Below the pieces are notes generated by a model. It was not told the origin of the DNA, ran no database searches, and was given only the letters and a program-made list of their open reading frames with translations. Positions 15,962-37,000 of a stretch of 64,000 nt of DNA are shown here, piece by piece. The DNA comes from Rhodanobacteraceae bacterium (lineage in GTDB: Bacteria; Pseudomonadota; Gammaproteobacteria; Xanthomonadales; Rhodanobacteraceae): NCBI GenBank assembly GCA_016790075.1, contig JAEUPP010000038.1, positions 1-64,000 of the forward strand, read 5' to 3'. Position 1 is the stretch's first letter. Every line of letters begins with the position of its first letter. Position numbers and translations under genes: made by a program.

Positions 15962-16822
15962 TTAGAACAGTACCGCCGACATCTTGCGCCGGTAGGTGCT
16001 GACGAGATCGGCGTCGTCGAGGATGGTGAAGGCTGCAATAAGCCGCTTCCTGGCCTGTCCGTCCTGCCAGTCGCGCTGCGCCTTGAGTATGTGCAGGAAT
16101 TGGTCCAGACCTTCCGCGGTTTCGCCTGCAATCAGCAGGCGCACGCCCAGCAGGTCGCGTGCCGCAAGATCGTTGGCATCGCGCTGCACCCGCGCAACGA
16201 GTTCGGCCAATGGCGGTGCGCCATCGAGTGCACGGGCGAAGTCTAGCCGGCTGCGCAGGCGCTTGGCCTTGTCATCCGCCGCAAATTTCGGTGGCAGGGC
16301 GTCAAGCTCGGCTTCAGCCGCATCGGCATTGCCGGCCTGCATCAGTGCTAGCGCGAGATCGAGCCTGAGTTCGGGCTTGTCCGGATTGGCCGCGATTTCC
16401 TGCTCCAGGCGGTGGACGGCCTCGGCCGGGTTTTCGTCGATAGCAAGATCTTCGGGCTGCTCTGTCATGGCAGCACCCGGCACGATGCCGTGCTTGGTCA
16501 GGAACTCCCTTACCGCGGATTCGGGTAGCGCACCCATAAAGCCGTCGATCATCTGGCCGTCCTTGAGCAGCACCACGGTCGGCAGCGAGCGGATACCGAA
16601 AATCGATGCGAGCTGCATCTCGGACTCGGTATCGACCTTGGCCAGCCGGAACGCGCCGGCATAATCGTCAGCCAGCTTTTCGAGCAGGGGCTTGAGCTGG
16701 CGGCAGGGCGCGCACCATTCAGCCCAGAAATCGACCAGCACGGGGGTCGTCAGCGAGGCCTTGATCACCTCGCTCTCGAAGTTGGCTTGGGTGGCGTCGA
16801 AGACGTGGGCTGACTCAGCCAT
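15962..16822 (-). CDS. cnoX: Chaperedoxin / co-chaperone with thioredoxin domain
   Basis: CnoX (YbbN) combines a thioredoxin fold with TPR-like helices, protects substrates from oxidation and hands them to GroEL or DnaK. From the ATG at 16822 (AAGGAG upstream) it is 286 residues, the normal length. The thioredoxin domain (residues 1-110) has the active-site region 'FWAEWCAPCRQLKPL' with the CxxC redox pair, unlike E. coli YbbN which has lost it, and a cis-Pro in 'RSLPTVVLL'. The C-terminal 150 residues are Ala/Leu/Asp-rich TPR-like helices. A DUF4442 gene follows 8 bases later. Confidence 0.94.
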   Translation of the reverse strand: MAESAHVFDATQANFESEVIKASLTTPVLVDFWAEWCAPCRQLKPLLEKLADDYAGAFRLAKVDTESEMQLASIFGIRSLPTVVLLKDGQMIDGFMGALPESAVREFLTKHGIVPGAAMTEQPEDLAIDENPAEAVHRLEQEIAANPDKPELRLDLALALMQAGNADAAEAELDALPPKFAADDKAKRLRSRLDFARALDGAPPLAELVARVQRDANDLAARDLLGVRLLIAGETAEGLDQFLHILKAQRDWQDGQARKRLIAAFTILDDADLVSTYRRKMSAVLF

Positions 16823-16977
16823 GGCAGGCTCCTTGAAAGAACGTCGCGATGTGGGTGCGCGAGGGTAAGCGATCAAGGGGGAGTTTGGGGCTTGTGGTGT
16901 GTGGTGGCGGCGGAAGTCCCGTGAACCCGGGCTTGCGGGAAATCTTCAATCTGCCCTCACGGTCATGAGCCTTGTCA

Positions 16978-17649
16978 TCAACGCCGAGCTGGCGCGAGGT
17001 CGGGGGCCATGCTGATTCCAGTGCAACGCACCGGAGCTAACTCGCCTGTTGCTGACAGCAGCACATCGCCTTGTTTAGTCCTTATCAGCAGTGCGCCACT
17101 TTTCTGCCGATACGCTGCTCTTGGCTGCCCGGGCAAACCGTGAAGACGCCGGGCTCGGACGCGACCGTCCTCATTGCCGATCAGGTACACGTAGCCATCG
17201 TCCTCAGACATATGCGCGTAGCCCGCAAGCGCAATCGTGCCGAATGGCATTGCAAAGAAGTCGATCGGGCCACTGTCGATGACAACATAGGGTTCGCCTT
17301 TATTCGGCACGAAGACGACCTCCCCGCCCCATTCCCCGCGGTGATCACCGAGTAGCCAGCCATCGCGATACCGAATACCGAGCGTCGCCCGATGCGGGAC
17401 AGTGGATGGCTCCGCTTCTTCGCTCGTGGACGATCGCCGAGCATCAAGCGGGTAGTGAAACTGCAGCAGTGCATCGCTTGGCGATGCCGCGCTTCCGCCG
17501 AATTTTTGCTCGTCGGAAGCCGCCGCACGTTCGCTTGTGAGGCATGACATATCGTGCCAAGGGTGGGCGGCGTGAGTTGCCGGTGCCACTACGACAAGCA
17601 GGGACGCCACTGCATTCCGGCACAGGGTGCGCGCGGCGGCGCGCAGCAA
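16978..17649 (-). CDS. Exported hypothetical protein abutting an IS1595 remnant
   Basis: The frame that ends at 16978 encodes about 223 residues if begun at the TTG at 17649 (or about 210 from GTG codons near 17610). The N-terminus then reads as a signal peptide: basic 'LLRAAARTLCRN', hydrophobic 'AVASLLVVV', and cleavage after 'PATHA'. The mature part looks beta-rich and globular ('LGIRYRDGWLLGDHRGEWGG', 'VVFVPNKGEPYVVIDSGPIDFF', 'GYVYLIGNEDGRVRARRL'). No family is recognised. Upstream, the same frame runs directly into the C-terminus of a broken IS1595-type transposase with no stop between them. The original promoter and start may therefore have been displaced by the insertion, and the start is uncertain. 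Confidence 0.6.
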   Translation of the reverse strand: MLRAAARTLCRNAVASLLVVVAPATHAAHPWHDMSCLTSERAAASDEQKFGGSAASPSDALLQFHYPLDARRSSTSEEAEPSTVPHRATLGIRYRDGWLLGDHRGEWGGEVVFVPNKGEPYVVIDSGPIDFFAMPFGTIALAGYAHMSEDDGYVYLIGNEDGRVRARRLHGLPGQPRAAYRQKSGALLIRTKQGDVLLSATGELAPVRCTGISMAPDLAPARR

Positions 17650-18290
17650 CCGTGACGGAATCACAGTGAGATCGAAGCGCCGGTTGAAGCGATAGCAAAA
17701 CTCGGAGAGGTAGCGTTGCAAATCCATGGGACTGAGCGTCTGGTAGATGCCGTGCAACGCATTCTTTACGTTTCCTAGCATGGTGTTGACCCACGTGAAT
17801 CGCTCGTCATTGGGAACACGCCGCCGGTCGCGATGGCCAGATGCGTGCAGGCCGCGTCGGTGTCTGCAGTGAAACAACTCAAGCCATCCGACACCACCGC
17901 GCTGCCGGGTGCCAAGTGACACGTGGCCCACGCGGCCAATTCGGTTGTGCGGAACCCCAGCCACGACTTCCATGCACATAGCCGCCGGATGACCTTGCGA
18001 CGCGCATTGCACAGTCGCCACAAATGGCGTCTTGCCGGGCTGCCGCGGCCCACGGCACCTCCATGACGCTCGCCACCCCAAGAGGCATCATCGATCTGTA
18101 TGTTGCCGCTCAGGGACCGTGTTGCGTCGCGCTCGACCATGACCTGCATCAGAAACCGGACCCGAAAAGGGAGCTTCGTGTCGGCGAAAAGTGCGCCACT
18201 CGACAGCGATGTCTGGTGTTTGCAGCGATTGCACTGGAACACGTCACCTGCGCCGCCGCGCGATGCACGTCAGTGCTTGCGCAACCAAGG
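17647..18290 (-). pseudogene. Degraded IS1595/ISXO2-type transposase
   Basis: Three frame changes are needed to follow the protein. It begins with the zinc-ribbon end 'FQCNRCKHQTSLSSG', then 'ADTKLPF', and then jumps to 'MQVMVERDATRSLSGNIQIDDASWGGE', so roughly 40 residues usually present between these blocks are missing. It continues in a second frame with 'GKTPFVATVQCASQGHP', returns to the first for 'CHLAPGSAVVSDGLSCF' and ends in the second with 'WVNTMLGNVKNALHGIYQ' and 'YLSEFCYRFNRRFDL'. These are the ordered blocks of ISXO2-like DDE transposases. The deletion and shifts make it non-functional. Terminal inverted repeats were not identified. Confidence 0.88.
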
Positions 18291-19556
18291 GATACGCGAG
18301 CGCATTGGGACCGGCCCGACGTCCATCAGGCACGAGGCGTCGATCACGTCATGATGGACCTCGCTGAACTCGTCGAGCCGGCGATCGAGATTCTTGACTC
18401 GTTGCGGGTCCACAGCAATGACATTCTGCACGGCCCAGTCGGGACTGACGTCGACGCGTCGCCGGCGACGTGTCTCAGGTTCGAACAGCCAGATGCAACT
18501 GCGGTGGATGTCGATCGCACCGTACAGGCCGCGGTCGAGATGCAGCACGTTCTGCAGCCATTCCCCGAGGCCGGCGCGGCCTTCGGCGGGTTCGCTGGCG
18601 TCGATCACCAGCACGCTCTTCACGTCGAATCGCTCGTCGAAGAAGATCACCTGGCCGCGTCGTGTATCCGTGACCACGTATTCCCCGCGCCAGCCGGGTT
18701 CGAAGCCGTGTGGATTGAGCAGGCCGCCGAGTACCTCGCGCGGCGTGCCGTCGGCACGGTTCACCAGTACCGCTCGGCCGTGATGGAACAGGGTTATGAG
18801 AATGCTGTCGTCGCTACGATAGCGGGCGTTGTTGAGATGTGCGGCCGTCAGTCCCGTTGGAAGGCCGAAGCCGTTCCAGGCGGCGGGATCGTCAACGATG
18901 AGGCAGTCGGGTGTGGCGTTTCTACCGGCCCCGCCGCGGCGCACGCGCGTGCCGGTCGGCGAGACGTCATAGCCGTGGTCCCAGGCGTTCCATACGAGCG
19001 TGAACACCTCGCGCTCGATGTCGAACTCGAACACGGTGTCGAATCCGGTCGAAACGACAAGCAGGCGCTTGCCGTCGGCCGAGAAGTACACTGAATGCAG
19101 CTGGGCAAACCAGGGATTGTGATAGATATGCGTCGTCTGTGCGCCCGCGTCGTAGATGCGCACCTGGTCACCGGCGGCCACCGCGAGGCGTAGGCCTGAC
19201 TGGTCCAGCCCAAAGGGTTCCTGGAGATACATCTTCTGGGTGATACCGTTGCGCAGCGCGTGTTGCACCAGCAACCCGTCGCGGTATGGGCGCGGCGTGC
19301 GGCCGCCCAGCGCCTTCATCGACTGTCCACCCTGCAGCCGCCGACGCATGATGCGGTTGAGGGCGTGCTGTTGTTCGTGCTTTACGGTGAAGACCAAGTC
19401 GAGGCCGTTACCGAGTGCCGGATCCTGTTCGTAGTCGCGCAGGTGCTGGCAGTGCAGGGTTCCGGGAAGCAGGCGTAGTGTGGACAGCACTTTGCGTATC
19501 CATCCGCCGCGCAACAACTGGTCAGCTCGATTGACTCGGAGAATGCGTCTGAGCAT
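18270..19556 (-). CDS. Beta-propeller-like hypothetical protein of the accessory island
   Basis: From the ATG at 19556 (GGAAGA upstream) the product is 428 residues, with no signal peptide or membrane helix. Repeated strand-turn blocks, for example 'GLRLAVAAGDQVRIYDAGAQ', 'HSVYFSADGKRLLVVSTGFD', 'RGEYVVTDTRRGQVIFFDE' and 'LYGAIDIHRSCIWLFEPETR', suggest a propeller-like fold of WD40/NHL type. No family or catalytic motif is recognised. The same-strand order metallophosphoesterase, broken phosphopantetheinyl transferase, this gene suggests it once belonged to the polyketide island. It appears intact even though its neighbours are decayed. Its 3' end touches the IS1595 remnant, so the original C-terminus may have been altered. 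Confidence 0.65.
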   Translation of the reverse strand: MLRRILRVNRADQLLRGGWIRKVLSTLRLLPGTLHCQHLRDYEQDPALGNGLDLVFTVKHEQQHALNRIMRRRLQGGQSMKALGGRTPRPYRDGLLVQHALRNGITQKMYLQEPFGLDQSGLRLAVAAGDQVRIYDAGAQTTHIYHNPWFAQLHSVYFSADGKRLLVVSTGFDTVFEFDIEREVFTLVWNAWDHGYDVSPTGTRVRRGGAGRNATPDCLIVDDPAAWNGFGLPTGLTAAHLNNARYRSDDSILITLFHHGRAVLVNRADGTPREVLGGLLNPHGFEPGWRGEYVVTDTRRGQVIFFDERFDVKSVLVIDASEPAEGRAGLGEWLQNVLHLDRGLYGAIDIHRSCIWLFEPETRRRRRVDVSPDWAVQNVIAVDPQRVKNLDRRLDEFSEVHHDVIDASCLMDVGPVPMRSRIPWLRKH

Positions 19557-19715
19557 GGTGATCGATTCTTCCAAGTGGCGATCCCTCGCAGGCTCCGACG
19601 ATGTCGGCCCCCCACATCGCTTCGTAGCCACACTGCTGGAAACGATCTGATCATCGCGTCAGACGGATGTCAACGAGCCCCCCCGCGACATCGCCATATC
19701 AGCCACCGCGCAGGC

Positions 19716-20198
19716 TCAGAGGACGTATGTCGGTCCAGGTAGCATGACGTAGGCGAAGCAGGTTTCCTCACTTCCTGTCGGGCCCGCCTGGCGCCAGCCC
19801 AACTGCCGAGCCTTGTCCAGCGGCCACAGCGAATATCGCAGGGACTTTGGCCAAGACAGGGTCGTTGAAAGCGTGCGCGGCGCACGTCGTCGAGCCGCGC
19901 CGTAGCGATGAAATGCAGCGTGCACGCATCACGGTGCCGCTCGGCGATGGCCGGCCAGCCGTAGTCGTTGACGTTGAAGCGCCAGTCGGCGGCGGCTGCC
20001 GGCGCGTAGCGCGACAACGTCGCGCGGACCTCGCGTGACCAGATAGCGCAGGCGGTCGCGCTCGAAATAGAAGCGCGCCATCTGTACGCATTCCTCGTCG
20101 GTCGGCAATTCGCGATAGCTCTTCGGCAGGTTCGGGCCGACGAAGCGGTCGTAATAGGCCAGCTACAAGTGCACTTCTCCGGGCGCGAGCGTGAGCAT
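19716..20198 (-). pseudogene. Broken Sfp-type 4'-phosphopantetheinyl transferase
   Basis: Reading leftward from the ATG at 20198, the opening 'MLTLAPGEVHL' is followed by an in-frame TAG where the family has Trp (HLW). It then continues 'LAYYDRFVGPNLPKSYREL' and 'ARFYFERDRLRYLVTR'. A frameshift follows, and the next frame reads 'VRATLSRYAPAAAADWRF', 'NVNDYGWPAIAE' and 'CTLHF', which are the conserved blocks of Sfp-type transferases. The catalytic core (the ISH and GxDxE regions) is missing or unreadable. Such enzymes load the pantetheine arm on PKS/NRPS carrier proteins. The gene begins 4 bases past the metallophosphoesterase stop, so they formed an operon. Confidence 0.85.
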
Positions 20199-20201
20199 CG
20201 G

Positions 20202-20963
20202 TCAGGCATCCAGTATCGCCGTAAGGTGCTTTGCAGCAATGCGCTCTTCATGGGGATAGCCGAAGGCGTTGTTGATGTAGGTGACGCCGTCGATTAGCCG
20301 TTGGCGGTTGATATGGCTGTGTCCATAGACGTGCATCTGCGAGTTCAGGCGGCGCAGTTGTGTATCTATGTGTGTCGATCCGAGCACGGGAAAGAGCATG
20401 CGGTGCTGGGCGGGAAGTGAGCTCGGCAGTAGGTCGATCCTTGGCACGAAGTGCGAAAAGGTGAGCACGCGCGCAACGTCTTCCGGCACCCGGGTCTGGT
20501 TCAAAGCGCTGAAGTGCAGGCTGATCTCCTCGGGTTCGAACCCATCAGGCCAGCGGCAGGCGACGAAATCCATCCAGGCGGCGCGCAAGGCATCGCTGGG
20601 CGTGCCGAACGTATAGTCGTACCAGCTGAAGAGTGGAACGATGTAGAGAGAGTCGCGGCGGAACGGTTGCATCGACACGCCGGCGTCTTCGGCGACGACC
20701 GCAACTTCGCGGAATTTGTCGAGGGATGTCTTGTCCGGCGTGTCGCGCAACAACCACAGATCGTGATTGCCTGGCACGAAGAGGACCTGCCTGAAGCATC
20801 GCGCGAACCGTTGCAGACACCAGCTCAGCATGGACAGCCGGTCGCTGACATCTCCTGCGAGGATCAGAATGTCGTCGCGGTAGTCGGCGGCCGAAAGATT
20901 CTCCACCCAGCGCGCATTGCTGTCGTAATCAACATGTATATCGGAAAGAGCGAAAATGCGCAT
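20202..20963 (-). CDS. Calcineurin-like metallophosphoesterase
   Basis: A 253-residue protein with all metal-binding blocks in order: 'ALSDIHVDY' (Asp8, His10), 'LILAGDVSD' (Asp38), 'FVPGNHDLW' (Asn66-His67) and a late 'HVYGHSHINRQ' (GHxH). It is a cytoplasmic phosphodiesterase or phosphatase with unknown substrate. A close comparison is with other predicted phosphoesterases found beside Sfp-type phosphopantetheinyl transferases. Here the next gene downstream is exactly such a transferase, now broken, so this gene may be the surviving half of a pair. The frame is intact and shows no sign of decay. Confidence 0.92.
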   Translation of the reverse strand: MRIFALSDIHVDYDSNARWVENLSAADYRDDILILAGDVSDRLSMLSWCLQRFARCFRQVLFVPGNHDLWLLRDTPDKTSLDKFREVAVVAEDAGVSMQPFRRDSLYIVPLFSWYDYTFGTPSDALRAAWMDFVACRWPDGFEPEEISLHFSALNQTRVPEDVARVLTFSHFVPRIDLLPSSLPAQHRMLFPVLGSTHIDTQLRRLNSQMHVYGHSHINRQRLIDGVTYINNAFGYPHEERIAAKHLTAILDA

Positions 20964-21406
20964 CGCGGACGGCAGTCACAAGGCCGGCATGGAACACGCA
21001 GTCTATCAAGCTGTCACGAATCCGCGGTCGCTGCTGCCACGATTCGTGCACTCGACATGGTTCGAGTTGCGTTCGCGCCGATCACCGCTCGTATCCATGC
21101 AACACGGGCTGACCAAAGCTGGCACGTGTGACGCAAGAGCGCCGCGCGCCAGCGGTCCGTTCACAACACTGGAAACAGCCACAACTACAGGTTTCTGGAC
21201 ATTGCGATACTCGTTGGGACGGTGATAGAGTCTTCGAGCCACGATCAACGAGATGTCGTTCGCGAAGTAAACGACGCCGGGGAGCGTCGTCAATCTGCAG
21301 TACCTGATTATGCCGACGGATCCACCTGCGCAGTGCTGGGATCGTAGGCACGATTCCCGTAGCGGGCCGGATGGTTTCGCCGGGGAATGAGCTAGGGGGA
21401 TAATTG
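20964..21406. other. Intergenic region between divergent genes
   Basis: About 440 bases separate the metallophosphoesterase (leftward) from the malonyl transferase (rightward). No reading frame with recognisable protein content is seen on either strand. A strong AGGGGGA ribosome site lies at 21393-21399, before the transferase ATG at 21407. The region presumably holds both promoters, but no convincing -35/-10 pair was identified. Confidence 0.6.
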
Positions 21407-22267
21407 ATGGTGGCGTTTGTTTTTCCCGGCCAGGGATCGCAGAAACGTGGCATGGGAGAGGAGCTTTTCGATCTTAAGGAGTATCAGGCGGCCGAGCGTG
21501 ATGTCGACGATCTCGTTGGCTACTCGATGCGACGCCTGTGCAAGGAAGACACACAGGATCAGCTAAAAGACACGCGTTACACTCAGCCTAGCCTGTATGT
21601 CGTCAACTCGCTCTATTTGACGAAACACACGCTCGCGTTCGGAAATCCGACGCACGTCGCCGGTCACAGTCTGGGTGAGTACAACGCGCTGCTGGCAGCG
21701 GGCGTGTTCGATTTCATGACCGGCCTGCGCCTAGTGCAAAAACGCGGCGAGCTCATGGCGCAAGCCACGAACGGCGGCATGGGCGCTGTGATCGGATTGA
21801 GCCGCGCAGCGATCGAAGCCGTCATGCGGCAGCACGACCTGAACAGCGTCGACGTCGCCAATTTCAATTCCCCGTCGCAGACCGTGATTTCCGGGCCTGT
21901 CGCCGATCTCACGCGTGCCGGCCAGTTGCTGGAACAGGCCGGCGCCAGGATGTACATGCCGCTGCAGGTCAGCGCAGCATTCCACTCGCGCTACATGGCG
22001 GAATACGCCGACGAATTCGCGCGCTTCCTGCAGCCCTTCACGTTCTCCGCGCCGCGGATTCCCGTGGTGTCGAATGTAACGGCGCAGCCCTATCCCTCCG
22101 ATAGCGAGGCCATCAAGTCCTTGCTGGTGCGCCAGATAACGCAGTCCGTGCAATGGACGCAAAGTGTGCGCTATCTGCTTGCACAGGGCGTTACGGATCT
22201 CAAGGAGGCCGGACCGGGCAACGTGCTGACTCGCCTGATCCAGCAGATCCAGCGGGAAAAAGACTGA
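21407..22267 (+). CDS. Trans-acting malonyl-CoA:ACP acyltransferase of a trans-AT PKS
   Basis: A 286-residue acyltransferase. The start is the ATG at 21407, 7 bases after AGGGGGA. The catalytic Ser88 lies in GHSLGEY (86-92), the N-terminal 'FPGQGSQ' forms the oxyanion region, Arg113 lies in 'QKRGELM' and His193 in 'AAFHSRYM'. These are the catalytic residues of FabD-type enzymes and are all present. It loads malonyl units onto carrier proteins. The deletion-marked PfaD, ACP and ketosynthase genes downstream mark it as the free-standing AT of a trans-AT polyketide cluster rather than the housekeeping FabD, which normally sits with fabH, fabG and acpP. The gene itself is undamaged. Confidence 0.9.
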   Translation: MVAFVFPGQGSQKRGMGEELFDLKEYQAAERDVDDLVGYSMRRLCKEDTQDQLKDTRYTQPSLYVVNSLYLTKHTLAFGNPTHVAGHSLGEYNALLAAGVFDFMTGLRLVQKRGELMAQATNGGMGAVIGLSRAAIEAVMRQHDLNSVDVANFNSPSQTVISGPVADLTRAGQLLEQAGARMYMPLQVSAAFHSRYMAEYADEFARFLQPFTFSAPRIPVVSNVTAQPYPSDSEAIKSLLVRQITQSVQWTQSVRYLLAQGVTDLKEAGPGNVLTRLIQQIQREKD

Positions 22268-22434
22268 CACAAAGGACTGCGCACCGCCGTCGAAGGTGTA
22301 ATACAGAGGGTTGCAAACCCATGAAGGCGACACTGACGTTTAGTGTGTGCGGTGCCGAGTTCCAGTTCGAAATTGCCATGTTTCTCGCGCCGGTGGTCGA
22401 ACTGGCGAAACTTGCTGCAGTTTCCCCGTAGGGA

Positions 22435-23334
22435 TTGCCGGTGCGACCGCTTCATCCACTCCGTGTCGATGCCACCGATGGTGTCGTTCCGGCATTTACC
22501 GCCGATGTGCTGGGCGACGCGCAGTTCAGATCCGACCATGGCTTGCGCTATGCCTATCTGGCGGGAGCCATGTACAAGGGCATTTCGTCGAGTGAGTTCG
22601 TCATCGCCCTCGGCCGTGCCGGCATGCCGGGTTATCCCGGTACCGCCGGAAGACATCGTGCGCGCCTTGCTGGCTGCCGGGCGCATCACCGCGACGGAAG
22701 CCGAACTGAGCTGAGGCATCCCGATGGTGGAGGAGATCTGCGCCGAGTCGGACTCCGGCCGACATACCGGCCAGGGCGTCGCGTTCGCGCTGCTGCCGGC
22801 GATGTTTGCGCTGCGCGACCGGCACGGGCCAACAAACTCTACGAGCTCTACCAGCGATTCGGATCGATCGAAGAGGTCGACGAACGCACCCGGCAGCAGA
22901 TCCAGGAAAAATACTTCCGGCGGTCCTTCGACGACGTGTGGAACGAGACCCGCTCGTACTGCCCCCGTGCGGCCCCGCAAAGCCTGCAGGAGATCGAGCG
23001 TAGTCCGGAGCCGAAGATGGCGCTGATCTTCAAATGGAACTTCGTGCATACGACGCGGCTTGCCATGCAGGGTGTTCCCAATCAGCAAGTCGACTATCAG
23101 ATCCACTGTGGCCCGGCGCTCGGTGCGTTCAAACAATGGATGAAGAACACGCCGCTGGAATCCTGGCGCAATCGCTACGACGCCGATCTCGGCAAGCGCC
23201 TGATGGAGGGTGCGGCGGAGTTCTTGAATCAGCGCTTCGCCGCGCTGCTGGGTGCCGGTCGCGCGGGCGCTGGCGGCACCGGTGCAGATCCTTCCCATGC
23301 CGCGGATGCGGCCGCAATAGCGAGAAGACCATGA
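22435..23334 (+). pseudogene. Truncated PfaD-type trans-acting enoyl reductase
   Basis: The first 70 codons encode 'PVRPLHPLRV', 'FTADVLGDAQFRSDHGLRYA' and 'YLAGAMYKGISSSEFVIALG', the N-terminal FMN-barrel start of PfaD-family enoyl reductases. A frame change follows after about codon 68 ('PPEDIVRALLAAG'). A short piece in another frame then reads 'ICAESDSGRHTGQGVAFALLP', a conserved central strand. A return to the first frame gives the C-terminus 'ANKLYELYQRFGSIEEVD', 'MALIFKWNFVHTTRLAMQG', 'VDYQIHCGPALGAF'. Around 200 residues of the normal 450 or more are missing from the middle. The 3' end runs into the ACP gene. The reductase cannot be functional. Confidence 0.87.
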
Positions 23335-23579
23335 ACAAGCAAGACATTATCGAGATAGTCGGCAAGCACGCAGCGGAAGTGCTGCCGGACCTCGAAGGCC
23401 ATCGGTTCGTCGAAGGCGACCGGCTGCAGGATCTCGGCGCGAATTCCGTGGACCGGGCCGAAATACTGACCATGGTGCTGGATTCGCTGTCGCTGGCGAT
23501 TCCGCGCGTTGAACTGTTCGGCCCGCGCAACATCGGAGAACTGGCCGATCTGTTGCTGCGTAAGCTGCAGTCGGCGTAG
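23331..23579 (+). CDS. AcpK-like stand-alone acyl carrier protein
   Basis: An 82-residue acyl carrier protein. The phosphopantetheine attachment site is Ser39 in 'LGANSVDRAEI', and the D-L-G-A-N-S-V-D-R-A-E form (instead of the housekeeping DSLD) matches the dedicated ACPs of HMG-CoA-synthase (beta-branching) cassettes in trans-AT polyketide pathways, such as AcpK. It lies just after the broken PfaD gene; the ATG at 23331 overlaps that frame by 4 bases. Its preserved frame contrasts with the decayed neighbours. The only Sfp-type transferase in the window that could activate it is a pseudogene, though the host AcpS or another transferase might still do so. Confidence 0.88.
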   Translation: MNKQDIIEIVGKHAAEVLPDLEGHRFVEGDRLQDLGANSVDRAEILTMVLDSLSLAIPRVELFGPRNIGELADLLLRKLQSA

Positions 23580-23730
23580 TCGGCGGTCGGGATCGACCAA
23601 GAGGAACCTCTGAGCAAGTCGAAATTTGGATTTGCAGCCCGTTGGTTCAGGGGGCGGCCTGATGCTTGCGCCGCATGCGTTTGGCGGGGTTGTGGCGGAG
23701 AGAGGCGGGGCGCAAGAGGCGCGCCTGCTC

Positions 23731-24322
23731 AGAACTTCCCATACGAACACTGGACGGTGCGCCTGCTGCACATGCCGGTGGACGGGCAGGGCAGTGCCTG
23801 GGTGTATCGCAACGGCGGCGTCTACGTTAGCGTCGGCGGCGCCGGTGGACTCGGCGAGGTGCTCAGCGAGCATCTCGTCCGCGGGCACGCGGCGCAGGTC
23901 GTATGGATAGGCCGGCGCGACAGCGACGCGGGGATCCGCAGCAAGCAAGATCGAGCGTCTGGCACAACTCGGTCCGGCATCGCACTACATCCAGGCCTAT
24001 GCGACGCAGCGGGCCGGCCTCGAGCGCGCCAGGCACTGCCCGGTCAAGGTCAGGGGCTACTGGGGCAGCGTTGGAATTGTCGCAACCAGTGATACGCTGC
24101 AGCGCATGGTGCAGCTCGGGGGGCTCGATCGAAGCGACCGAGGGCATCGCAGCGCTGGACCAACGGCTGGCTGGCCCGTTCACCCAGCTCGCGTTCGTGA
24201 AGTCGCGGCGCGATGCCGGTACGCCCGAGACGACTCCCGAACAGATCGTGGAATTGCCGGCCGACGCGCCGGTGGTGGATGCATCGATCTTCTCCCGAAA
24301 ACGGACCGTGCATGGCACATGA
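23731..24322 (+). pseudogene. Remnant of a multidomain trans-AT polyketide synthase (ketoreductase region)
   Basis: After about 150 bases without recognisable content, fragments of a PKS ketoreductase region appear: 'WVYRNGGVYVSVGGAGGLGE' (the NADPH-binding GGxGGLG motif) and 'QVVWIGRRDSD'. A frame change follows, then 'IERLAQLGPASHYIQAYATQR'. A junction leads to 'YWGSVGIVATSDTLQRM', and another frame change gives 'SIEATEGIAALDQRLAGPFT' and 'QLAFVKSRR'. These occur in this order in trans-AT PKS modules but with most of the domain, including the catalytic Ser-Tyr-Lys, missing. The fragment ends at 24322, overlapping the ketosynthase start. It is what remains of a much larger gene. Confidence 0.85.
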
Positions 24323-25529
24323 CGTAGTGATAACCGGCGTGGGCGTGACGTCCGCGATCGGCCAGGGCAAGGCGGCATTCCTTGCCGCCCTGCTGGACGG
24401 ACGCAGCGCGTTCCGCGTGATGCGCCGGCCCGGCCGGCAGAAAGACACAAACTTTCTCGGCGCGGAAATCGACGATCTGGCGATGCCGGCTTCGCTGTCG
24501 CCATCACTGGTCCGAAGCGCTTCGTACTCCGGCAAGGTGGCACTGGCCACCCTGCACGAAGCCTGGGACGAGGCGCGTCTTGGCGATGTCGATCCGCATC
24601 GCATCGGTCTCGTCGTCGGCGGCTCCAACTTCCAGCAGCGTGAGCTGCTGCTGCTGCAGGAACAGTACGCCGGCCGTGAACGCTTCCTGCGCCCGACCTA
24701 CGGCATGATGTTTATGGACACCGACCTCGTCGGCCTGTGCACCGCTCAATTCGGTATCCACGGCCCATCCTATGGCCTCGCCGGCGCCTCGGCGAGCGGG
24801 CAACTGGCCGTGGTGCAGGCCGTGCAGGCCCTTCGCGCCGGCCAGGTGGATGTCTGCATCGCGCTGGGTCCGCTCATGGATCTGTCGTACTGGGAATGCC
24901 AGGGCCTGCGCGCACTCGGTGCGATGGGATCGGACCGCTACGCCGATGCGCCCGCCGACGCGTGCCGGCCCTTCGATCGCGACCGCGACGGGTTCATCTA
25001 CGGCGAAAACTGCGCTGCCCTGGTACTGGAACGCGCGGGCGCTTCCCGGCGCGACGGGGTGACGGCCTATGCGGCGGTGGCAGGCTGCGGCGTTGCAATG
25101 GACGCCAACCGCAATCCCGATCCATCGTTCGAGGGTGAGACACACGCCGTTCGTGCGGCGCTCGCCGACGCGCACTGTGCCCCGCAGGACATCGACTACG
25201 TCAACCCGCACGGTACCGGTTCGCCGCTGGGCGACGAGACCGAGCTGCGCGCGCTGCGCGAATGCGGGCTCGAAGCGGCGGCCATCAATGCGACCAAGTC
25301 GGTGACCGGCCATGGCCTGTGCGCCGCGGGTGCGGTGGAGGTCGCTGCCACCGTGCTGCAGATGCGCGCCAGCGCATTGCATCCCTGCCTCAATCTGGAT
25401 ACGCCGTTCGATCAGGCTTTCAACTGGGTGCGCGAGGCACGCACCCGACACACGATCCACAACGCGTTGACCCTGAGCATGGGCTTCGGCGGTATCAATA
25501 CCGCGCTGTGCCTGCGCCTTCCGGATTGA
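24312..25529 (+). CDS. PksF-like decarboxylating ketosynthase (active-site Cys replaced by Ser)
   Basis: A 405-residue thiolase-fold ketosynthase. Around residues 151-166 the sequence reads GPSYGLAGASASGQLA. The position of the catalytic Cys (normally TACSSS) is Ser160, as in PksF-type free-standing ketosynthases that decarboxylate malonyl-ACP to acetyl-ACP for beta-branching. Both catalytic histidines are present: His300 in 'NPHGTGSPLGDETE' and His334 in 'KSVTGHGLCAAG'. Together with the AcpK-like ACP, this defines the start of an HMG-CoA-synthase cassette. The expected synthase (PksG) and enoyl-CoA hydratases (PksH, PksI) are absent. The frame is intact. It is not FabF, which would keep the Cys. 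Confidence 0.9.
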   Translation: MAHDVVITGVGVTSAIGQGKAAFLAALLDGRSAFRVMRRPGRQKDTNFLGAEIDDLAMPASLSPSLVRSASYSGKVALATLHEAWDEARLGDVDPHRIGLVVGGSNFQQRELLLLQEQYAGRERFLRPTYGMMFMDTDLVGLCTAQFGIHGPSYGLAGASASGQLAVVQAVQALRAGQVDVCIALGPLMDLSYWECQGLRALGAMGSDRYADAPADACRPFDRDRDGFIYGENCAALVLERAGASRRDGVTAYAAVAGCGVAMDANRNPDPSFEGETHAVRAALADAHCAPQDIDYVNPHGTGSPLGDETELRALRECGLEAAAINATKSVTGHGLCAAGAVEVAATVLQMRASALHPCLNLDTPFDQAFNWVREARTRHTIHNALTLSMGFGGINTALCLRLPD

Positions 25530-25582
25530 GCAACGAGGAGAGAACCGACACGGCAAATCGCTAGCATCCCAGCGGCAACCTT

Positions 25583-25815
25583 GTGTGGAATGGGGTATCG
25601 GCATTCCACCGCAACGGCCAATTGGCCTGGAACGGCCGCAACGCCTTCCACGACAACAGCCAGCTCGCCTGGAACGGTCAGACCGCGTTCTACGACGACG
25701 GCCGCTTCGGGGCGCCCTCGAACTCGAACTCGGCCTCGGCACTCGCGCCAGCTTCGGCCTCGACGGCTTCCGCCTGTACATCTATGGTATGTCCCTGGTC
25801 GGTGGCTGAGTCCGT
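25583..25815 (+). pseudogene. Broken protein with tandem WNG-type repeats
   Basis: One frame (from 25583) encodes three near-identical units of about 14 residues: 'VSAFHRNGQLAWNG', 'RNAFHDNSQLAWNG' and 'QTAFYDDGRFGAP'. After the third, a frame change leads to 'LELGLGTRASFGLDGFRLYI' and 'YGMSLVGG' with a stop near 25807. The repeats resemble short beta-hairpin repeats of the YwqK/MORN type, with the pattern [FY]-x-[ND]-x-x-[QR]-[LF]. No RBS or start fits the gene as it stands. It is probably the 3' part of an originally longer gene, disrupted by a frameshift. No function is assigned. Confidence 0.6.
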
Positions 25816-25921
25816 GCCGGCACGAAGCGCAAGCAGGCCAGCGCCAACGCATCCCCGGTCATGACATCACCGTGGGCCTGGTGCCTGCAGCGGCGCAGGG
25901 TCCGGCTCGAGGAACGATCCG

Positions 25922-26743
25922 ATGGAAGAACACTGTCTGCTTGCCGTCCTCATCGACGCCGATAACGCACAGCCCTCCGTGGTCGACGCCCTGCTGGCGG
26001 AAATTGCGAAATACGGCACAGCCAGCGTGAAGCGGATCTACGGCGACTTCACCTCCACGCGCCTGACGCAATGGAAACAGGCCCTGCTGCGCCACTCGAT
26101 CACGCCGGTACAGCAGTTCGCCTACACCACCGGCAAGAACGCCACCGACAGTGCCCTGATTATCGACGCCATGGACCTGCTCTACACGGCGCGCTTTGAC
26201 GGATTCTGCCTGGTGTCCAGCGATTCCGACTTCACGCGACTGGCCCAGCGCCTGCGCGAGCAGGGCAAGACTGTCTACGGATTCGGTGAGAAAAAGACCC
26301 CGGACCCCTTCATTCAGGCCTGCGACAAATTCATCTATACCGAACTGCTGCGGACCCAGACGGCCCCGCAAGCACCCGCAGCCCCCAAGCCCAATCCCCC
26401 CAAAAAGAACAAGCCTGCTCCCGCCGCGGCGAAAGCCAGCCCAGCACCGGCCGGCGAGCCACCCGCGAGCGAGCCGACCACAGCGCCGCAAGCGGAAACC
26501 GGCAATCTCGCGCCCCCCGTCGAACTGTTGCGCCGCGCCATCGACGAATCCTCCGACGAGCGTGGCTGGGCCAACCTCGGCGCCGTGGGCAGCTACATGA
26601 CCAAGGTCCAGCCCGACTTCGACCCGCGGCTATACGGCAATCGCAAGCTCAGTGATCTGCTGCGCTCGCTGGAACGTGTATTTGGGCTGGAGGAGCGCGG
26701 GCCTGCAGGGAGTCCCAAAGCGATATATGTGCGGAATTTGTGA
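25922..26743 (+). CDS. NYN-domain (PIN-like) protein with C-terminal LOTUS/OST-HTH domain
   Basis: A 273-residue protein. The N-terminal NYN nuclease-like domain (residues 5-140) has the acidic blocks 'VLIDADNAQ', 'ATDSALIIDAMDLL' and 'LVSSDSDF', which would coordinate a metal in PIN-type RNases. A Pro/Ala/Lys linker (about 145-195) connects to a LOTUS/OST-HTH domain (about 200-270, 'LRRAIDESSDERGWANLGAV' and 'LYGNRKLSDLLRSLERVF'), thought to bind RNA. Related proteins act in RNA turnover. The gene looks complete and undamaged, and marks the right border of the decayed polyketide region. Confidence 0.92.
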   Translation: MEEHCLLAVLIDADNAQPSVVDALLAEIAKYGTASVKRIYGDFTSTRLTQWKQALLRHSITPVQQFAYTTGKNATDSALIIDAMDLLYTARFDGFCLVSSDSDFTRLAQRLREQGKTVYGFGEKKTPDPFIQACDKFIYTELLRTQTAPQAPAAPKPNPPKKNKPAPAAAKASPAPAGEPPASEPTTAPQAETGNLAPPVELLRRAIDESSDERGWANLGAVGSYMTKVQPDFDPRLYGNRKLSDLLRSLERVFGLEERGPAGSPKAIYVRNL

Positions 26744-27038
26744 CGGGGCGGCGAGCGGCAATTCGCGCAAGGCGTTGTGTCTGCTCGCCAGTGAATCGAC
26801 TGATCGCCATGTTTCTCGTGGCAACTTCCGCCCGTCGAAATTCTTCTTGCACTCAATGGGCGAAAGAACAGCTCATGTGGCTGTATTTATGGAGGCCCTA
26901 GAAGTCGCTGATCCATCACTTCCCTGTCGATGCTGGCCGCCCCATGAAACGATCGGCGCCCAAGGCACAGCTCAATAGGAAAGCTCTCTTAAGCGAGCAC
27001 CGGATGCCCAACCACGGACTCTCTGCCAAACAACGCGC
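26744..27038. other. Intergenic spacer without recognisable gene
   Basis: The 295 bases after the NYN gene contain no reading frame that reads like a protein on either strand, and no clear terminator or RNA structure was seen. Confidence 0.5.
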
Positions 27039-27185
27039 TTAGCTCAGCGCAGGCTCGATCACCAGCAGCGACAGCATCAGCACGATCGCCGCGAAAAAAG
27101 TACTGGTGTCCGTGCGCGAAAAGTCCCATGCCAAGAAGTTCTTCTCCACCATTTCACGCGCCTCGGTATGCGCGCGATCACCCGA
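27039..27185 (-). pseudogene. C-terminal scrap of a membrane protein
   Basis: Leftward, the frame ending at the TAA at 27041-27039 reads 'AHTEAREMVEKNFLAWDFSR', then 'TDTSTFFAAIVLMLSLLVIE', then 'PALS'. This is a plausible soluble helix followed by one transmembrane helix, with a protein-like codon pattern. No start codon with context fits upstream, and the frame loses sense beyond about 27185. The likely interpretation is the tail of a deleted gene; the family is not recognised. The segment from 27186 to 27383 has nothing recognisable. Confidence 0.4.
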
Positions 27186-27383
27186 CCTCGAATGCGTGAG
27201 CGGCGGTCCAACAGTATGGATATTGTCGGCTGGGTGAACTGATCTATCGGTCTGGAGCAGGTATCCGTACTAGTTTCGACCAGCGTCCACGATGTGCGAC
27301 CACTGGCCTCTGCGGTTCTGCTGGCCAGGGGGCCGATTCCCCAGCCGGTCGCCGCGACGGCGGGCTTGAGCCCGCCCTGCGGT

Positions 27384-28685
27384 CTAGGGCATGCGATAGA
27401 CCACGCCATCCTTCATGACGAAGCTGACCTTTTTCATCAGACTGATGTCCTGCAGCGGGTTGCCTGGTACCGCGACGATGTCGGCGAACTTGCCGGCGGC
27501 GAGGCTGCCCAGGTCCTTGCTGACGCCCAGCAGTTCGGCCGCGTGGGTGGTGGCGGCCTGTAGCGTGAACATCGGCGGCATGCCGGCTTGGACCATGAGC
27601 TCGAATTCGCGCGCGTTCTGTCCGTGGGGGAACACGCCGGCATCTGTGCCGAAGGCGATCTTGACCCCGGCCTTGTAGGCGGCGCCGGCCGTGCCCTTGA
27701 TCTTGGGGCCGATGGCGAGTGCCTTGGGGCGCACGACTTCGGGGTAGTAGTCCGGCTCTGCGGCGGCTTTTTCCGAAACGAAGGTGCCGGCGATGATGGT
27801 AGGAACGTACCAGGTGCCGTACTGTTTCATCAGCGGAAACAGATCGCTGTCCATCTGCGTGCCGTGCTCGATGGAGGTGACTCCGCCGAGAATGGCGCGG
27901 CGCATGCCTTCCTTGCCGTGGGCGTGGGCGGCGACGGTGAAGCCGTAGTCCTTGGCGGTATCGACGATGGCGCGGACTTCCTCGACCGTGAACTGCGGGT
28001 TGTCGCCGCTCTTGGCGTAGGACAAGACGCCGCCGGTAGCGGTGATCTTGATCAGGTCCGCACCGTCCTTGTAGTGCTGGCGTACTGCCTTGCGCGCGTC
28101 ATCGAGGTTGTTGATGACGCCGTTCTCCGGACCCGGGTCGGGCATCAGTCCGCGGCGGGCGCCGTTGCTGGGGTCGCCGTGGCCGCCGGTGGAGGCGATG
28201 GTCTTGCCGGCCGTGAAGATGCGCGGCCCGCGCAGCATGCCCTGATTGACCGCATTGCGCAGGGATACCGACACACCGCCGCCACGCTCACCAAGATCGC
28301 GCACCGTGGTGAAACCGGCCAGCAGTGTGCGTTCCGCGAACACCGCGCTCTTGAACGCTATGTCGGCGTCGTTGAGGCGGAAGCCTTCGGAATAGGCGTC
28401 GCGATTGGTTTCCGAGGTCAGGTGCGTATGCATGTCCATGAGCCCGGGCAGGCAGGTTGTGCCGGCCGGCAGTTCGATCACGCTTGCGCCGGCCGGCGCA
28501 GCCGTGCCGGCGCTGACCTCGCGTATGCGGTTGCCGTCTATAACTACGGTTGATGCGCCCAGCAGTTTGCCGGACACGGTGTCGACGAGGGCGGGGCAAT
28601 GCAGCGCCGTGACCGGGTCGGCAGCTGCAGCGGGCAGGGCGGTGAATAGCGCAAGGCAGAGGGTAGTACGGGTCAGCGGCTGCAT
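27384..28685 (-). CDS. Exported metal-dependent amidohydrolase (imidazolonepropionase-like)
   Basis: From the ATG at 28685 the product is 433 residues, with a signal peptide (MQPLTRTTLCLALFTALPAAAA). The amidohydrolase metal site is complete: 'GLMDMHTHL' (HxH), Lys in 'DLIKITATGGV' (the carbamylated Lys region), 'VAAHAHGKEG', 'SIEHGTQMD' and 'FGTDAGVFPHG'. The C-terminus returns to the small beta-sandwich ('GSLAAGKFADIVAVPGNPL'). Related exported enzymes hydrolyse dipeptides (Xaa-Pro or Xaa-Arg/Lys) or cyclic amides. Two zinc ions would sit at the active site. It is divergent from leuS. Confidence 0.93.
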   Translation of the reverse strand: MQPLTRTTLCLALFTALPAAAADPVTALHCPALVDTVSGKLLGASTVVIDGNRIREVSAGTAAPAGASVIELPAGTTCLPGLMDMHTHLTSETNRDAYSEGFRLNDADIAFKSAVFAERTLLAGFTTVRDLGERGGGVSVSLRNAVNQGMLRGPRIFTAGKTIASTGGHGDPSNGARRGLMPDPGPENGVINNLDDARKAVRQHYKDGADLIKITATGGVLSYAKSGDNPQFTVEEVRAIVDTAKDYGFTVAAHAHGKEGMRRAILGGVTSIEHGTQMDSDLFPLMKQYGTWYVPTIIAGTFVSEKAAAEPDYYPEVVRPKALAIGPKIKGTAGAAYKAGVKIAFGTDAGVFPHGQNAREFELMVQAGMPPMFTLQAATTHAAELLGVSKDLGSLAAGKFADIVAVPGNPLQDISLMKKVSFVMKDGVVYRMP

Positions 28686-34041: not shown

Positions 34042-37000
34042 ATGTTCGTTCGTCGTTTACTGCTGTGTGCCGCGGCGGCGGCCACCGTAGTGCTTTGCTC
34101 GCCGCCGACGCAAGGATCGATGCCGAATGCGGCGACCATGACCTTGCCCTTGCATCTGCTGCTGCCTGCGGCGCCGGAGGATGATCCGCCGGGATTGCCA
34201 GGTGACCTCACAGCATTGCCCATGCCCAGTTCGCCGGTGTCGCAGGGCGCCATAGCGGGATACTTGCAGGGCAGCGCTTCGGTCAGTCCAACCGGCCAAT
34301 ACGGGTACACGATACCCCTGGATGTACCCGCGGGACCCGCGGGCTGGCAGCCCACGCTCACTTTGAATTACAGCAGCGACGCCGGCAACGGCCCGGTGGG
34401 GCGCGGCTGGAGCATCGCTGGCAGCGAATCGCGGATCACCCGTTGCGGCAAGACCCTCTCCACTGACAACCTGCAGAGCGGTGTGCACTTCGATGCCGAA
34501 GACCGCTTCTGCCTGGACGGCGCGCGTCTGGTGGTCATCGCCGGCACCTATGGTGCAACGGGTTCGGAGTACCGCTTCGAAAACGACAGCATCACGAAGA
34601 TCGTCGCCGGAGACGCCAGTGCACAGGGGCCGCAGCGCTTTGATGTGTGGACCAAAGACGGCACCCACAGCGAGTACACCAGCGAGACGGCCACGCGCAA
34701 TACCATGACCGTGAATGGTATCGGCAAGTATGAAGACGTACGCCTGCTGTGGTTGTTGCGGCGCAAGACCGACGGGTCCGGAAACGTCATCGAGTACGAC
34801 TATCACGTCAACAAATTGTCGGACGCTGACAACGCGATTGAGATTCTGCCGCGTCAGATCAGCTATTCGACGGCCAACGCGGGATCGCGTTGGCGCCTGG
34901 TCAAATTCATCTACGACGGTTGTGATGCAGTTACCTGCGATCGGCCAGACCCCATCATCGTATGGCAGTCGGGCGTGCGCCAGGAGACGCGCAAGCTGCT
35001 GCGCTCCATCGAGCTGCACGCGCCGCGTCCTTCGGCGACGTCGATGGTGTGGCGGTATTTGTTCACCTATGAACAAGGAGCCATCACCAAGAACAGCCGC
35101 CTGACCTCCGTGCGCAAATGCGGATATATGGGCGCATGTCTGCTGGCCAAGAATTTCGTCTGGTCCGACGAAATACCGAAATTCACCGATCGCGTGATCG
35201 AATCGGATTTCAAACCCAAGATCGCGCCGCTGTTTGCGTATGTCTGGTATCCGAAGGCGGCCGGGCGATACCCGACGAGACCGCAACCCAGCGGGCAGAG
35301 CGAGCCGCCAATGGTCATGAACGCTGGCGACATGAACAACGATGGCGCCGACGACATCATTTACTCACTGGGTGAAGGCCCTGAACGCCCCAACGCCAGC
35401 AGCTGCTGTACGAATTCCCCGGGACATTACTTCCTGCGCAGCGTTGCCAGTCCGGTGGCGATCCTGCCGCTTAACAGCAAACATCTTTTCAACGATTACG
35501 ATCACTACGAAAGCCATGCCGGCAGCAAATTCACCGATCGCAATCTGGTGAACAGCCGTATCGTCGATATCGATGGCGACGGCATTGTCGAGCTGTGGGC
35601 GGCGCGCCAGCGTGTCGATAGCACGGTCGAAGAACCCCGCGCCGGCGATTTCTTTCATTGGGACTGTGATGACCCGTCCACGACCGGCTCCTGCGACCCT
35701 AGCTTGCCCGGCCAATTGGTCATCGGGACCAGTTCCGGCAGTTTCGACTACACGACGAATCTGCAGGGCGACCCAACGACGCTTGATTTCGCCGACCTCA
35801 ACGGCGACGCGCGGCCGGATACGTCGCAGATCGCAGCGCTCGGCGCGTACAGCGAATTCGGTCCGGACTTCCTCTGGTTCACCAATCTCCAGGACGGTTC
35901 GCGTCTGTTCGGCCCTCAGCAGCTGCTGACGCCAGACCCCACCAAACGCGTATGCCCTATGGTTGCGGTCGACCTGGACGGCGACGGACGCTCTGAGCTG
36001 TTGACCGGTGATATGGGCGATCTTATCGGGAGCGGCGATCGTCATCCGACCTGTTCAAGCACAGTCGCCGGACGCGTGCTGCGCTATGACGACAGCGGTA
36101 GCGGTGTGATGACTTCGTTCGGAGACGGCCGTTATCCGGTCCCGCCGATTTCCTATGCGGACAACGGTGCCAATCTGTCGGGTACGATCAACGGCCAGCC
36201 CATCATTCCGCTGACCGAGACCTGGGAGCAGGAAAAAGAGGAGCTGTACTTTGGCGACTTCAACGGCGACGGGTTGACCGATGCGGCGATGGTCGGATGG
36301 AGCGGCAAGCCGTCGCAACCGTATCCACATATCAACATCCGTACGAATTCGGGCAACGGCTTCGGCCCGCCGCAGGAGTTCTCGCGTCTGCCGACGTGGC
36401 CGCACATCTGGGAGCTGCGCGACAAAGGTCTGCGTATCGAGGACATGGACGGTGACGGACGATCCGACTTTGTGTTCTTCCACGTCAACTCCACCAGCAC
36501 TCCCTGGGGCACGAACTACGCTGGCATCACGATCCTGCACGCAACCGGCGCCCGCATTGCCTTGCCGGATCGCGCAAATCAGGCGCAGGAGTACGTATCG
36601 GACCTTGGTCAAACGAATTACGGCGACTGGCGTCTCTCAAAACTGGGCGACTTCAACGGCGATGGACGCCCCGACATCATCACTTACCGCGGCAACGGGC
36701 GCACTCAGAACGAGCTGGTGCTGATCGAGAACGAGGTCGACCCGGTGAGCACCGGCTACCACAACGACAGCCTTACGGCCGACCAGGCCGAGCCCGGCGC
36801 CTCGGACCTTCTCGTCGAAGTGTGGGATCAGGGCACCCTGTGGGCGCGCGAAGAAATCGGCTACGCGAAAGAATGGTCAGCACGTCCGCGTTCGGACCAG
36901 GGATGCGGCGGTCTGGTGCATCCGGTCTCGTTTCCGCGCAATTGCCTGCATCGCGGCATGGCCTTCGTGCGCAAGACCCGGACCCGGGATCACCTGCTGA

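What the first reader, a model, noticed from the sequence alone, without database searches (positions are those of the whole stretch)
19716..25529. Relic of a trans-AT polyketide pathway in an otherwise ordinary chromosome
A malonyl transferase, PfaD-type enoyl reductase, AcpK-like ACP, ketoreductase fragment, PksF-like ketosynthase and Sfp-type transferase occur within 6 kb. Three are intact and three are frameshifted or deleted. The mix fits internal deletions that removed most of the megasynthase while sparing its small accessory genes. The order (AT, ER, ACP, PKS piece, KS) is that of trans-AT clusters with beta-branching.
Basis: partly seen in the sequence, partly recalled or inferred. 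Interest (0 to 1): 0.8.

Follow-up and report, generated by a model that had tools for sequence, protein, structure and literature searches.

The report
Polyketide relic may replace lost fabD
A bacterium carries the wreck of a foreign polyketide gene cluster, and since its own copy of a normally essential fat-making gene (fabD) has been deleted, one well-preserved enzyme of that wreck may be doing that job instead.

Summary
Window 19.7-25.5 kb has an intact PksC-type malonyl transferase (AT), AcpK and PksF-type ketosynthase (Ser active site), a PfaD-type reductase in three pieces, a ketoreductase remnant, and a broken PPTase beside an MbtH-like fragment. It is a decayed trans-AT/HCS-cassette cluster inside a ~10.5-kb insertion. 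Four of six Tahibacter relatives have 168-296 bp at that site, and no relic gene was matched there in any of the six. No HMG-CoA-synthase match worth the name was found in the genome.

The chromosome is not ordinary: in the same assembly the housekeeping fabD between fabH and fabG is a ~120-bp stub. The window AT is the assembly's only FabD-type hit over cut-off, and it descends from trans-AT acyltransferases, not from Tahibacter FabD.

Best reading: a dead cluster whose AT survives because it supplies malonyl-ACP in place of FabD. Close rival: the MAT domain of the genome's PfaA; PfaA MAT covers for FabD in Photobacterium (PMC8174602). The fabD deletion and the AT's ancestry are shown; the takeover is inferred.

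The parts
16880..27395 (.). ~10.5-kb insertion between a thioredoxin-family gene (15965-16822) and an amidohydrolase gene (27387-28685)
   Evidence: Homology to 4 relatives stops at 16879-16890 and resumes at 27382-27400. Spacing between the two genes is 168-296 bp in 4 of 6 relatives and 1.8 kb in G007; G004 has no match to the amidohydrolase there. Gene names:
19719..19925 (-). MbtH-like fragment
   Evidence: PF03621 30.2 bits, cut-off 27
19910..20195 (-). Broken PPTase: two pieces in different frames, one with a stop
   Evidence: tblastn of the G003 cluster PPTase: 52% over 40 aa and 39% over 56 aa, E 4e-12
20205..20963 (-). Intact metallophosphoesterase
   Evidence: PF00149 48.8 bits, cut-off 21.5; 57% to a gene in the G003 PKS cluster
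21407..22267 (+). Intact stand-alone malonyl transferase (PksC type), proposed substitute for FabD
   Evidence: TIGR00128 332.3 bits; only over-cut-off hit in the assembly; tree; catalytic motifs; PDB relatives include PksC 5dz6 and DisD 3rgi
22498..23331 (+). PfaD-type enoyl reductase remnant: three pieces, two internal deletions, frame changes, a TGA
   Evidence: TIGR02814 pieces
23331..23579 (+). Intact AcpK-type acyl carrier protein
   Evidence: NF005502 113.6 bits; 0 departures at 16 near-invariant columns
23603..23695 (+). Copy of a dispersed ~110-bp repeat, lying between AcpK and the PKS remnant
23805..24202 (+). Ketoreductase remnant of a PKS module: start and end kept, middle lost, three frames
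   Evidence: tblastn of a G004 KR region, residues 142-215, 308-342, 344-370
24312..25529 (+). Intact PksF-type ketosynthase with Ser in place of the active-site Cys
   Evidence: NF005490 599.8 bits; GASASG and both His motifs

Best explanation
A trans-AT polyketide cluster with an HCS (beta-branching) cassette was inserted between a thioredoxin-family gene and an amidohydrolase gene in a Tahibacter lineage, then shrank by deletion: the megasynthase, reductase and PPTase are debris. Its small malonyl-CoA:ACP transferase stayed intact. In the same assembly the native fabD of the fab operon is reduced to a stub, so malonyl-ACP for fatty acid synthesis has to come from elsewhere. I think the captured polyketide AT is the most likely source: it would take malonyl from malonyl-CoA through Ser in GHSLGE, with the malonyl-binding Arg (KRGELM) and the His (AFHSRY), and pass it to the housekeeping AcpP. 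Shown: the relic, the insertion, the fabD stub, the AT's polyketide ancestry, its being the only FabD-type hit over cut-off, its intact motifs. Inferred: that it loads AcpP in the cell, and that this is why it was kept.
For: fabD reduced to a stub between fabH and fabG (names confirmed): a ~63-bp start piece (62.5 bits to G007; 50 shuffles reach at most 28.3) and 16 bases on a ~40-bp end piece, ~0.7 kb missing. FabD lies intact between fabH and fabG in 5 of 7 relatives; in the other 2 (G002, G005) it is cut by contig ends. TIGR00128 over cut-off in 143 of 147 family genomes, a count that includes the window AT and the PksC-type hits of G002 and G005. In the own assembly the window AT is the only over-cut-off hit; the other five lie in frames of 2012 aa or more. 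AT falls with trans-AT transferases (97/99) and with G004's AT (99/94; 75% identity), apart from FabD of five relatives (100/100). Motifs kept; 2 departures at 68 near-invariant columns, range 0-4 among 32 rows. NG86 dN/dS ~0.10 against G004. PDB relatives include PksC and DisD.
Against: AcpK, KS and the phosphoesterase are intact too, so the AT may merely not have decayed yet. The genome has a true PfaA (TIGR02813 1334 bits, cut-off 1010.1) with a MAT domain, and PfaA MAT covers for FabD in Photobacterium (PMC8174602, abstract and passages). Five of 7 relatives (G002-G006) carry a PksC-type stand-alone AT; three of them (G003, G004, G006) have intact fabD, so having such an AT does not by itself lead to loss. 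One genome, one event. At 95.65% completeness a moved fabD is not excluded. The end piece of the stub alone is barely above shuffles (28.3-36.8 bits in four relatives against 28.3), and at the start piece the stub's identity to four relatives (0.67-0.83) overlaps theirs to each other (0.75-0.86). The AT's terminal branch is twice its sister's (0.23 against 0.11). dS is high and compared pairs differ in distance. No promoter-like match upstream of the AT on its strand.
Confidence: 0.46

Rival explanations
1. The relic is debris at mixed stages of decay. The MAT domain of the genome's PfaA (contig C47) supplies malonyl-ACP for fatty acid synthesis, and the window AT is a bystander that has not yet broken.
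For: PfaA-type protein of 1981 aa over the family cut-off with a MAT domain (TIGR00128 203.3 bits; PF00698 128.3 bits) beside a PfaD-type gene and a 2016-aa partner. In Photobacterium profundum fabD is dispensable, fabD and pfaA mutations are synthetically lethal, and pfa genes complement E. coli lacking fabD (PMC8174602). AcpK, KS and phosphoesterase are intact without a known use.
Against: Five relatives (G003-G007) have a Pfa-type MAT by score; four of them have intact fabD and the fifth (G005) has it cut by contig ends. A stand-alone AT needs no large complex to act on AcpP. Not every PUFA-synthase AT can replace FabD: an AT-like domain of Thraustochytrium subunit B could not (PMC8003026, abstract), though that is not the PfaA MAT.
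Confidence: 0.3
2. Both enzymes share the load: window AT and PfaA MAT are redundant, which made fabD dispensable.
For: Both candidates are intact in the same genome.
Against: G003, G004 and G006 also combine a stand-alone PksC-type AT with a Pfa-type MAT and have intact fabD.
Confidence: 0.13
3. An intact fabD was moved to an unassembled part of the chromosome, or the C67 gap is an assembly fault; the relic has no role.
For: Completeness 95.65%, 83 contigs. The stub's start piece is not much more diverged than relatives are from each other.
Against: The stub sits in order between fabH and fabG and its conserved GQGSQ motif is changed, which a misjoin would not give.
Confidence: 0.07
4. No enzyme replaces FabD: the strain depends on outside fatty acids.
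For: Staphylococcus fabD mutants are described as fatty acid auxotrophs (passage in PMC8174602).
Against: fabH, fabG and fabF are intact in this genome, which would be idle in such a strain; not tested further.
Confidence: 0.04

Closest known systems
PksC / DisD-type stand-alone malonyl transferases of trans-AT polyketide synthases
   Same: Sequence family, size and catalytic motifs; PDB matches 5dz6 and 3rgi; tree clade
   Different: The megasynthase it would serve is gone and the housekeeping FabD is gone too
HCS cassette (AcpK, PksF, PksG, PksH, PksI) of trans-AT clusters such as bacillaene
   Same: AcpK and PksF-type KS(Ser) present and intact, preceded by AT and PfaD-type ER in the order of 3 of 55 fetched loci
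   Different: No HCS match worth the name in the genome and no ECH gene called in the insertion; without HCS the branching chemistry cannot run
PfaA MAT covering for FabD in Photobacterium profundum SS9 (PMC8174602)
   Same: A secondary-pathway malonyl transferase covers for loss of FabD
   Different: There genetics in the laboratory with a domain of a megasynthase; here a natural fabD stub beside a stand-alone AT from a dead cluster, function inferred

Membership tests
trans-AT polyketide cluster with HCS cassette | Stand-alone malonyl AT, PfaD-type ER, AcpK and PksF-type KS(Ser) clustered | tested here: met
   (ER only as remnant)
trans-AT polyketide cluster with HCS cassette | HMG-CoA-synthase homologue (PksG) | tested here: not met
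   Query: the G004 cassette protein (TIGR01835 235 bits, below its cut-off of 360); best hit in own genome E 0.04, 14 bits
trans-AT polyketide cluster with HCS cassette | Two enoyl-CoA-hydratase homologues (PksH, PksI) | not tested
   None seen among the genes called in the insertion; no genome-wide search
trans-AT polyketide cluster with HCS cassette | AT-less modular megasynthase | tested here: not met
   Only a ~400-bp KR remnant was found at the locus; elsewhere in the genome only AT domains and KS relatives were searched
FabD (malonyl-CoA:ACP transacylase), by sequence family | TIGR00128 over curated cut-off; GQGSQ, GHSLGE, Arg and His motifs | tested here: met
   330.7 bits; motifs
Orthologue of Tahibacter FabD | Groups with FabD of the fab operon | tested here: not met
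   Separate clades; 35-38% identity
Functional substitute of FabD | Loads malonyl onto AcpP and supports growth without fabD | not testable with these tools
   Needs complementation or enzyme assay

The most novel reading that the evidence does not exclude
A natural replacement of a core fatty-acid gene by a polyketide enzyme: native fabD was deleted and the malonyl transferase of a dead, horizontally gained trans-AT cluster took over. Boldest form: the three surviving genes AT, AcpK and KS(Ser) are kept as a unit that loads malonyl onto a carrier and decarboxylates it to acetyl-ACP, feeding fatty acid synthesis with both extender and primer.
Probability: 0.42. Interest if true: 0.75.

Novelty: new variant of a known kind. 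Interest (0 to 1): 0.58.

Why it matters
Fatty acid enzymes serving polyketide pathways are well known (recalled); for the reverse, a secondary-pathway enzyme covering a core step of fatty acid synthesis, I found one laboratory precedent (PfaA, PMC8174602). If right, dead biosynthetic clusters can hand enzymes to primary metabolism, FabD need not be essential where such clusters spread, and the interface between trans-AT transferases and the housekeeping ACP becomes testable with a natural pair.

Tried and rejected
Intact cluster at the same locus in relatives: not seen in six examined; G002 was not examined there. The neighbouring NYN gene as a synteny anchor: its G007 relative sits elsewhere. 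A trans-AT megasynthase elsewhere in the genome that the small genes might serve: the AT searches found, besides the window AT, AT domains in large frames on C10, C12 and C39 and the Pfa proteins on C47; a full search for AT-less KS modules was not made. The large unknown gene 18273-19631: one plasmid record, 34%, not in a polyketide cluster. Promoter scan: one match, 1.0 expected, on the other strand. YN00 dN/dS failed; NG86 only, and no dS was obtained for the AT-L052 pair; the G001 row of the fabD start comparison was out of register and is not used. Column test: the ER fragment had 5 departures of 32 (one of 13 rows higher, one equal), the high end but not outside its homologues, so this test cannot date the decay; MPE had only 5 rows. 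The repeat search of the IS-like stretch found only itself. Paper searches for a trans-AT transferase replacing FabD or for loss of fabD: no listed title or abstract start reports it, nearest the PfaA case; the library lacks most subscription journals.

Full report
WHERE IT IS. The window is contig C53 of a 5.62-Mb, 83-contig genome (95.65% complete). Its nearest relatives are Tahibacter: LeuS is 82-89% identical in seven same-genus genomes, and three KS relatives at 61-66% carry the names T. caeni, T. aquaticus and T. harae.

WHAT IS THERE. AT, AcpK and KS are intact and score over the curated cut-offs of TIGR00128, NF005502 and NF005490. The KS has GASASG where FabF of the same genome has TACTTA with its Cys, and keeps both His motifs; members of its family are known (recalled) as the decarboxylating KS of the HCS cassette. 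The PfaD-type reductase survives as three pieces with two internal losses. The ketoreductase keeps its start and end, in three frames. The PPTase is in two frames with a stop, beside an MbtH-like fragment. A metallophosphoesterase is intact; a 57% relative lies in a G003 (T. aquaticus) PKS cluster next to an AT and two genes from the KS.

WHAT CLUSTER IT WAS. Of 55 loci fetched with the KS, 42 have an AcpK match beside it, and 3 (L022 Brevibacillus, L035 Paenibacillus, L037 Holophagae) have the order AT-ER-AcpK-KS on one strand. In those three, AcpK and KS adjoin; in the window a copy of a dispersed ~110-bp repeat (23603-23695) and the KR remnant lie between them. That repeat has 14 matches in the genome, counting the query itself and one inverted match on top of it; six cover about 100 bases or more. 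It may mark a deletion or rearrangement joint (inference). G004 has a full cassette, HCS, two ECH-type genes, AcpK, KS and AT; the HCS protein scores as HMG-CoA synthase (TIGR01835 235 bits, under its cut-off) and the two ECH as NF005498 and NF005496 over theirs. In the window's genome the HCS query finds nothing better than E 0.04. So the beta-branching pathway looks dead.

WHERE IT SITS. Between the thioredoxin-family gene and the amidohydrolase gene (names) the matches in relatives are 278 bp apart in G001, 195 in G003, 296 in G006 and 168 in G005; in G007 1843 bp; G004 has no amidohydrolase match there and LeuS begins 211 bp from the thioredoxin match. In the window they are 10.5 kb apart, and homology to four relatives stops at 16879-16890 and resumes at 27382-27400. 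No gene called inside the insertion has a match at E 1e-15 in the stretches of the six relatives (40 kb each, 6.3 kb for G005). G002 was not examined there.

THE UNEXPECTED PART. Searches for AT domains and for FabD did not show a housekeeping FabD. The fab operon on C67 has fabH, fabG, an acpP-like frame and fabF, but only ~310 bp between fabH and fabG. That gap holds a stub: a ~63-bp piece matching the fabD start (62.5 bits; best of 50 shuffles 28.3) and, 16 bases on, a ~40-bp piece matching the end (28.3-36.8 bits in four relatives, so weak alone, but in the right place), with about 0.7 kb gone. In frame the start reads GLGSR where relatives have GQGSQ. At the start piece the stub is 0.67-0.83 identical to four relatives, which are 0.75-0.86 identical to each other, so the decay is not old. 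Five of seven relatives have intact fabD at this place; in G002 and G005 it is cut by contig ends, in G002 without its middle seen. Across the family 143 of 147 genomes have a FabD-type match over cut-off; this count includes the window AT and the PksC-type matches of G002 and G005. The four without are G089 (by its E-value) and G136, G153 and G157 (no match at 1e-60), in 120 to 530 contigs. In the window's genome the only over-cut-off match is the window AT.

IS THE AT A MOVED FABD? No. It is 35-38% identical to FabD of five relatives and 75% to an AT of G004 that lies one gene from a 10,415-aa frame with KS domains. In a tree of 61 rows it falls with the trans-AT transferases (97/99) and with G004's AT (99/94), while FabD of five relatives forms its own clade (100/100). 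Its catalytic Ser, Arg and His motifs are kept. Arg at this place marks a transferase rather than an acyl hydrolase (PMC11775670, passages). Its closest solved relatives by sequence include PksC and DisD.

IS IT STILL WORKING? At columns that 95% of homologues share, AT departs at 2 of 68 (range 0-4, 32 rows) and KS at 3 of 113 (range 0-6, 49 rows); AcpK departs at none of 16 at the 90% level (44 rows). NG86 dN/dS is about 0.10 for AT against G004 (0.173/1.787), 0.28-0.34 for KS (G003, G005), 0.43 for AcpK (G006) and 0.26 for the phosphoesterase (G003); the pairs differ in distance and dS is high, so this is weak. The broken ER fragment lies at the high end of its homologues but not outside them, so intactness alone does not prove use.

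WHO MAKES MALONYL-ACP? The candidates are the window AT and the MAT domain of PfaA on C47 (TIGR02813 1334 bits, cut-off 1010.1). In Photobacterium profundum fabD is dispensable, fabD and pfaA mutations are synthetically lethal, and pfa genes rescue E. coli without fabD (PMC8174602, abstract and passages). Five relatives (G003-G007) have such a MAT by score, four of them with intact fabD; five (G002-G006) have a PksC-type AT, three of them with intact fabD. So neither explains the loss on comparative grounds alone. I favour the AT because it is free-standing, of FabD size and score, conserved, and sits in a cluster that gives it no other use; the margin over the PfaA rival is modest.

VERDICT. 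Relic confirmed (about 0.95). Takeover of FabD's job by the relic AT: a little under one in two, testable by one complementation experiment.

Noticed in passing
G000:C67 ~144356-144476 (L102 11357-11477, minus strand): Stub of the housekeeping fabD between fabH and fabG.
   Followed up: yes
window 16978-18242 (-): Broken frames of an IS1595/ISXO2-type transposase (PF12762 in two frames, 39.1 bits over and 21.7 bits under the cut-off of 27) at the left end of the insertion; the stretch 16880-19700 has no other match in the genome.
   Followed up: partly
window 18273-19631 (-): Gene of ~400-450 aa in the insertion without a Pfam or NCBIfam match; 34% to a hypothetical protein on an Eleftheria terrae plasmid.
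   Followed up: partly
window 25922-26740 (+): Intact NYN plus OST-HTH/LOTUS gene inside the insertion; its 72% relative in G007 lies at another place.
   Followed up: partly
G000:C9:13385-13505, window 23603-23695 and 11 other places: Dispersed ~110-bp repeat, MITE- or REP-like by eye, in this genome.
   Followed up: partly
G004:C1 ~3444700-3551000 and ~3632000-3709700: Two very large PKS regions with stand-alone ATs in one Tahibacter genome, with frames up to 10,415 aa.
   Followed up: no
window 34363-41235 (+): Frame of 2291 aa with FG-GAP and RHS repeats next to the conserved leuS-nadD block, without a match in the relatives' stretches compared.
   Followed up: no
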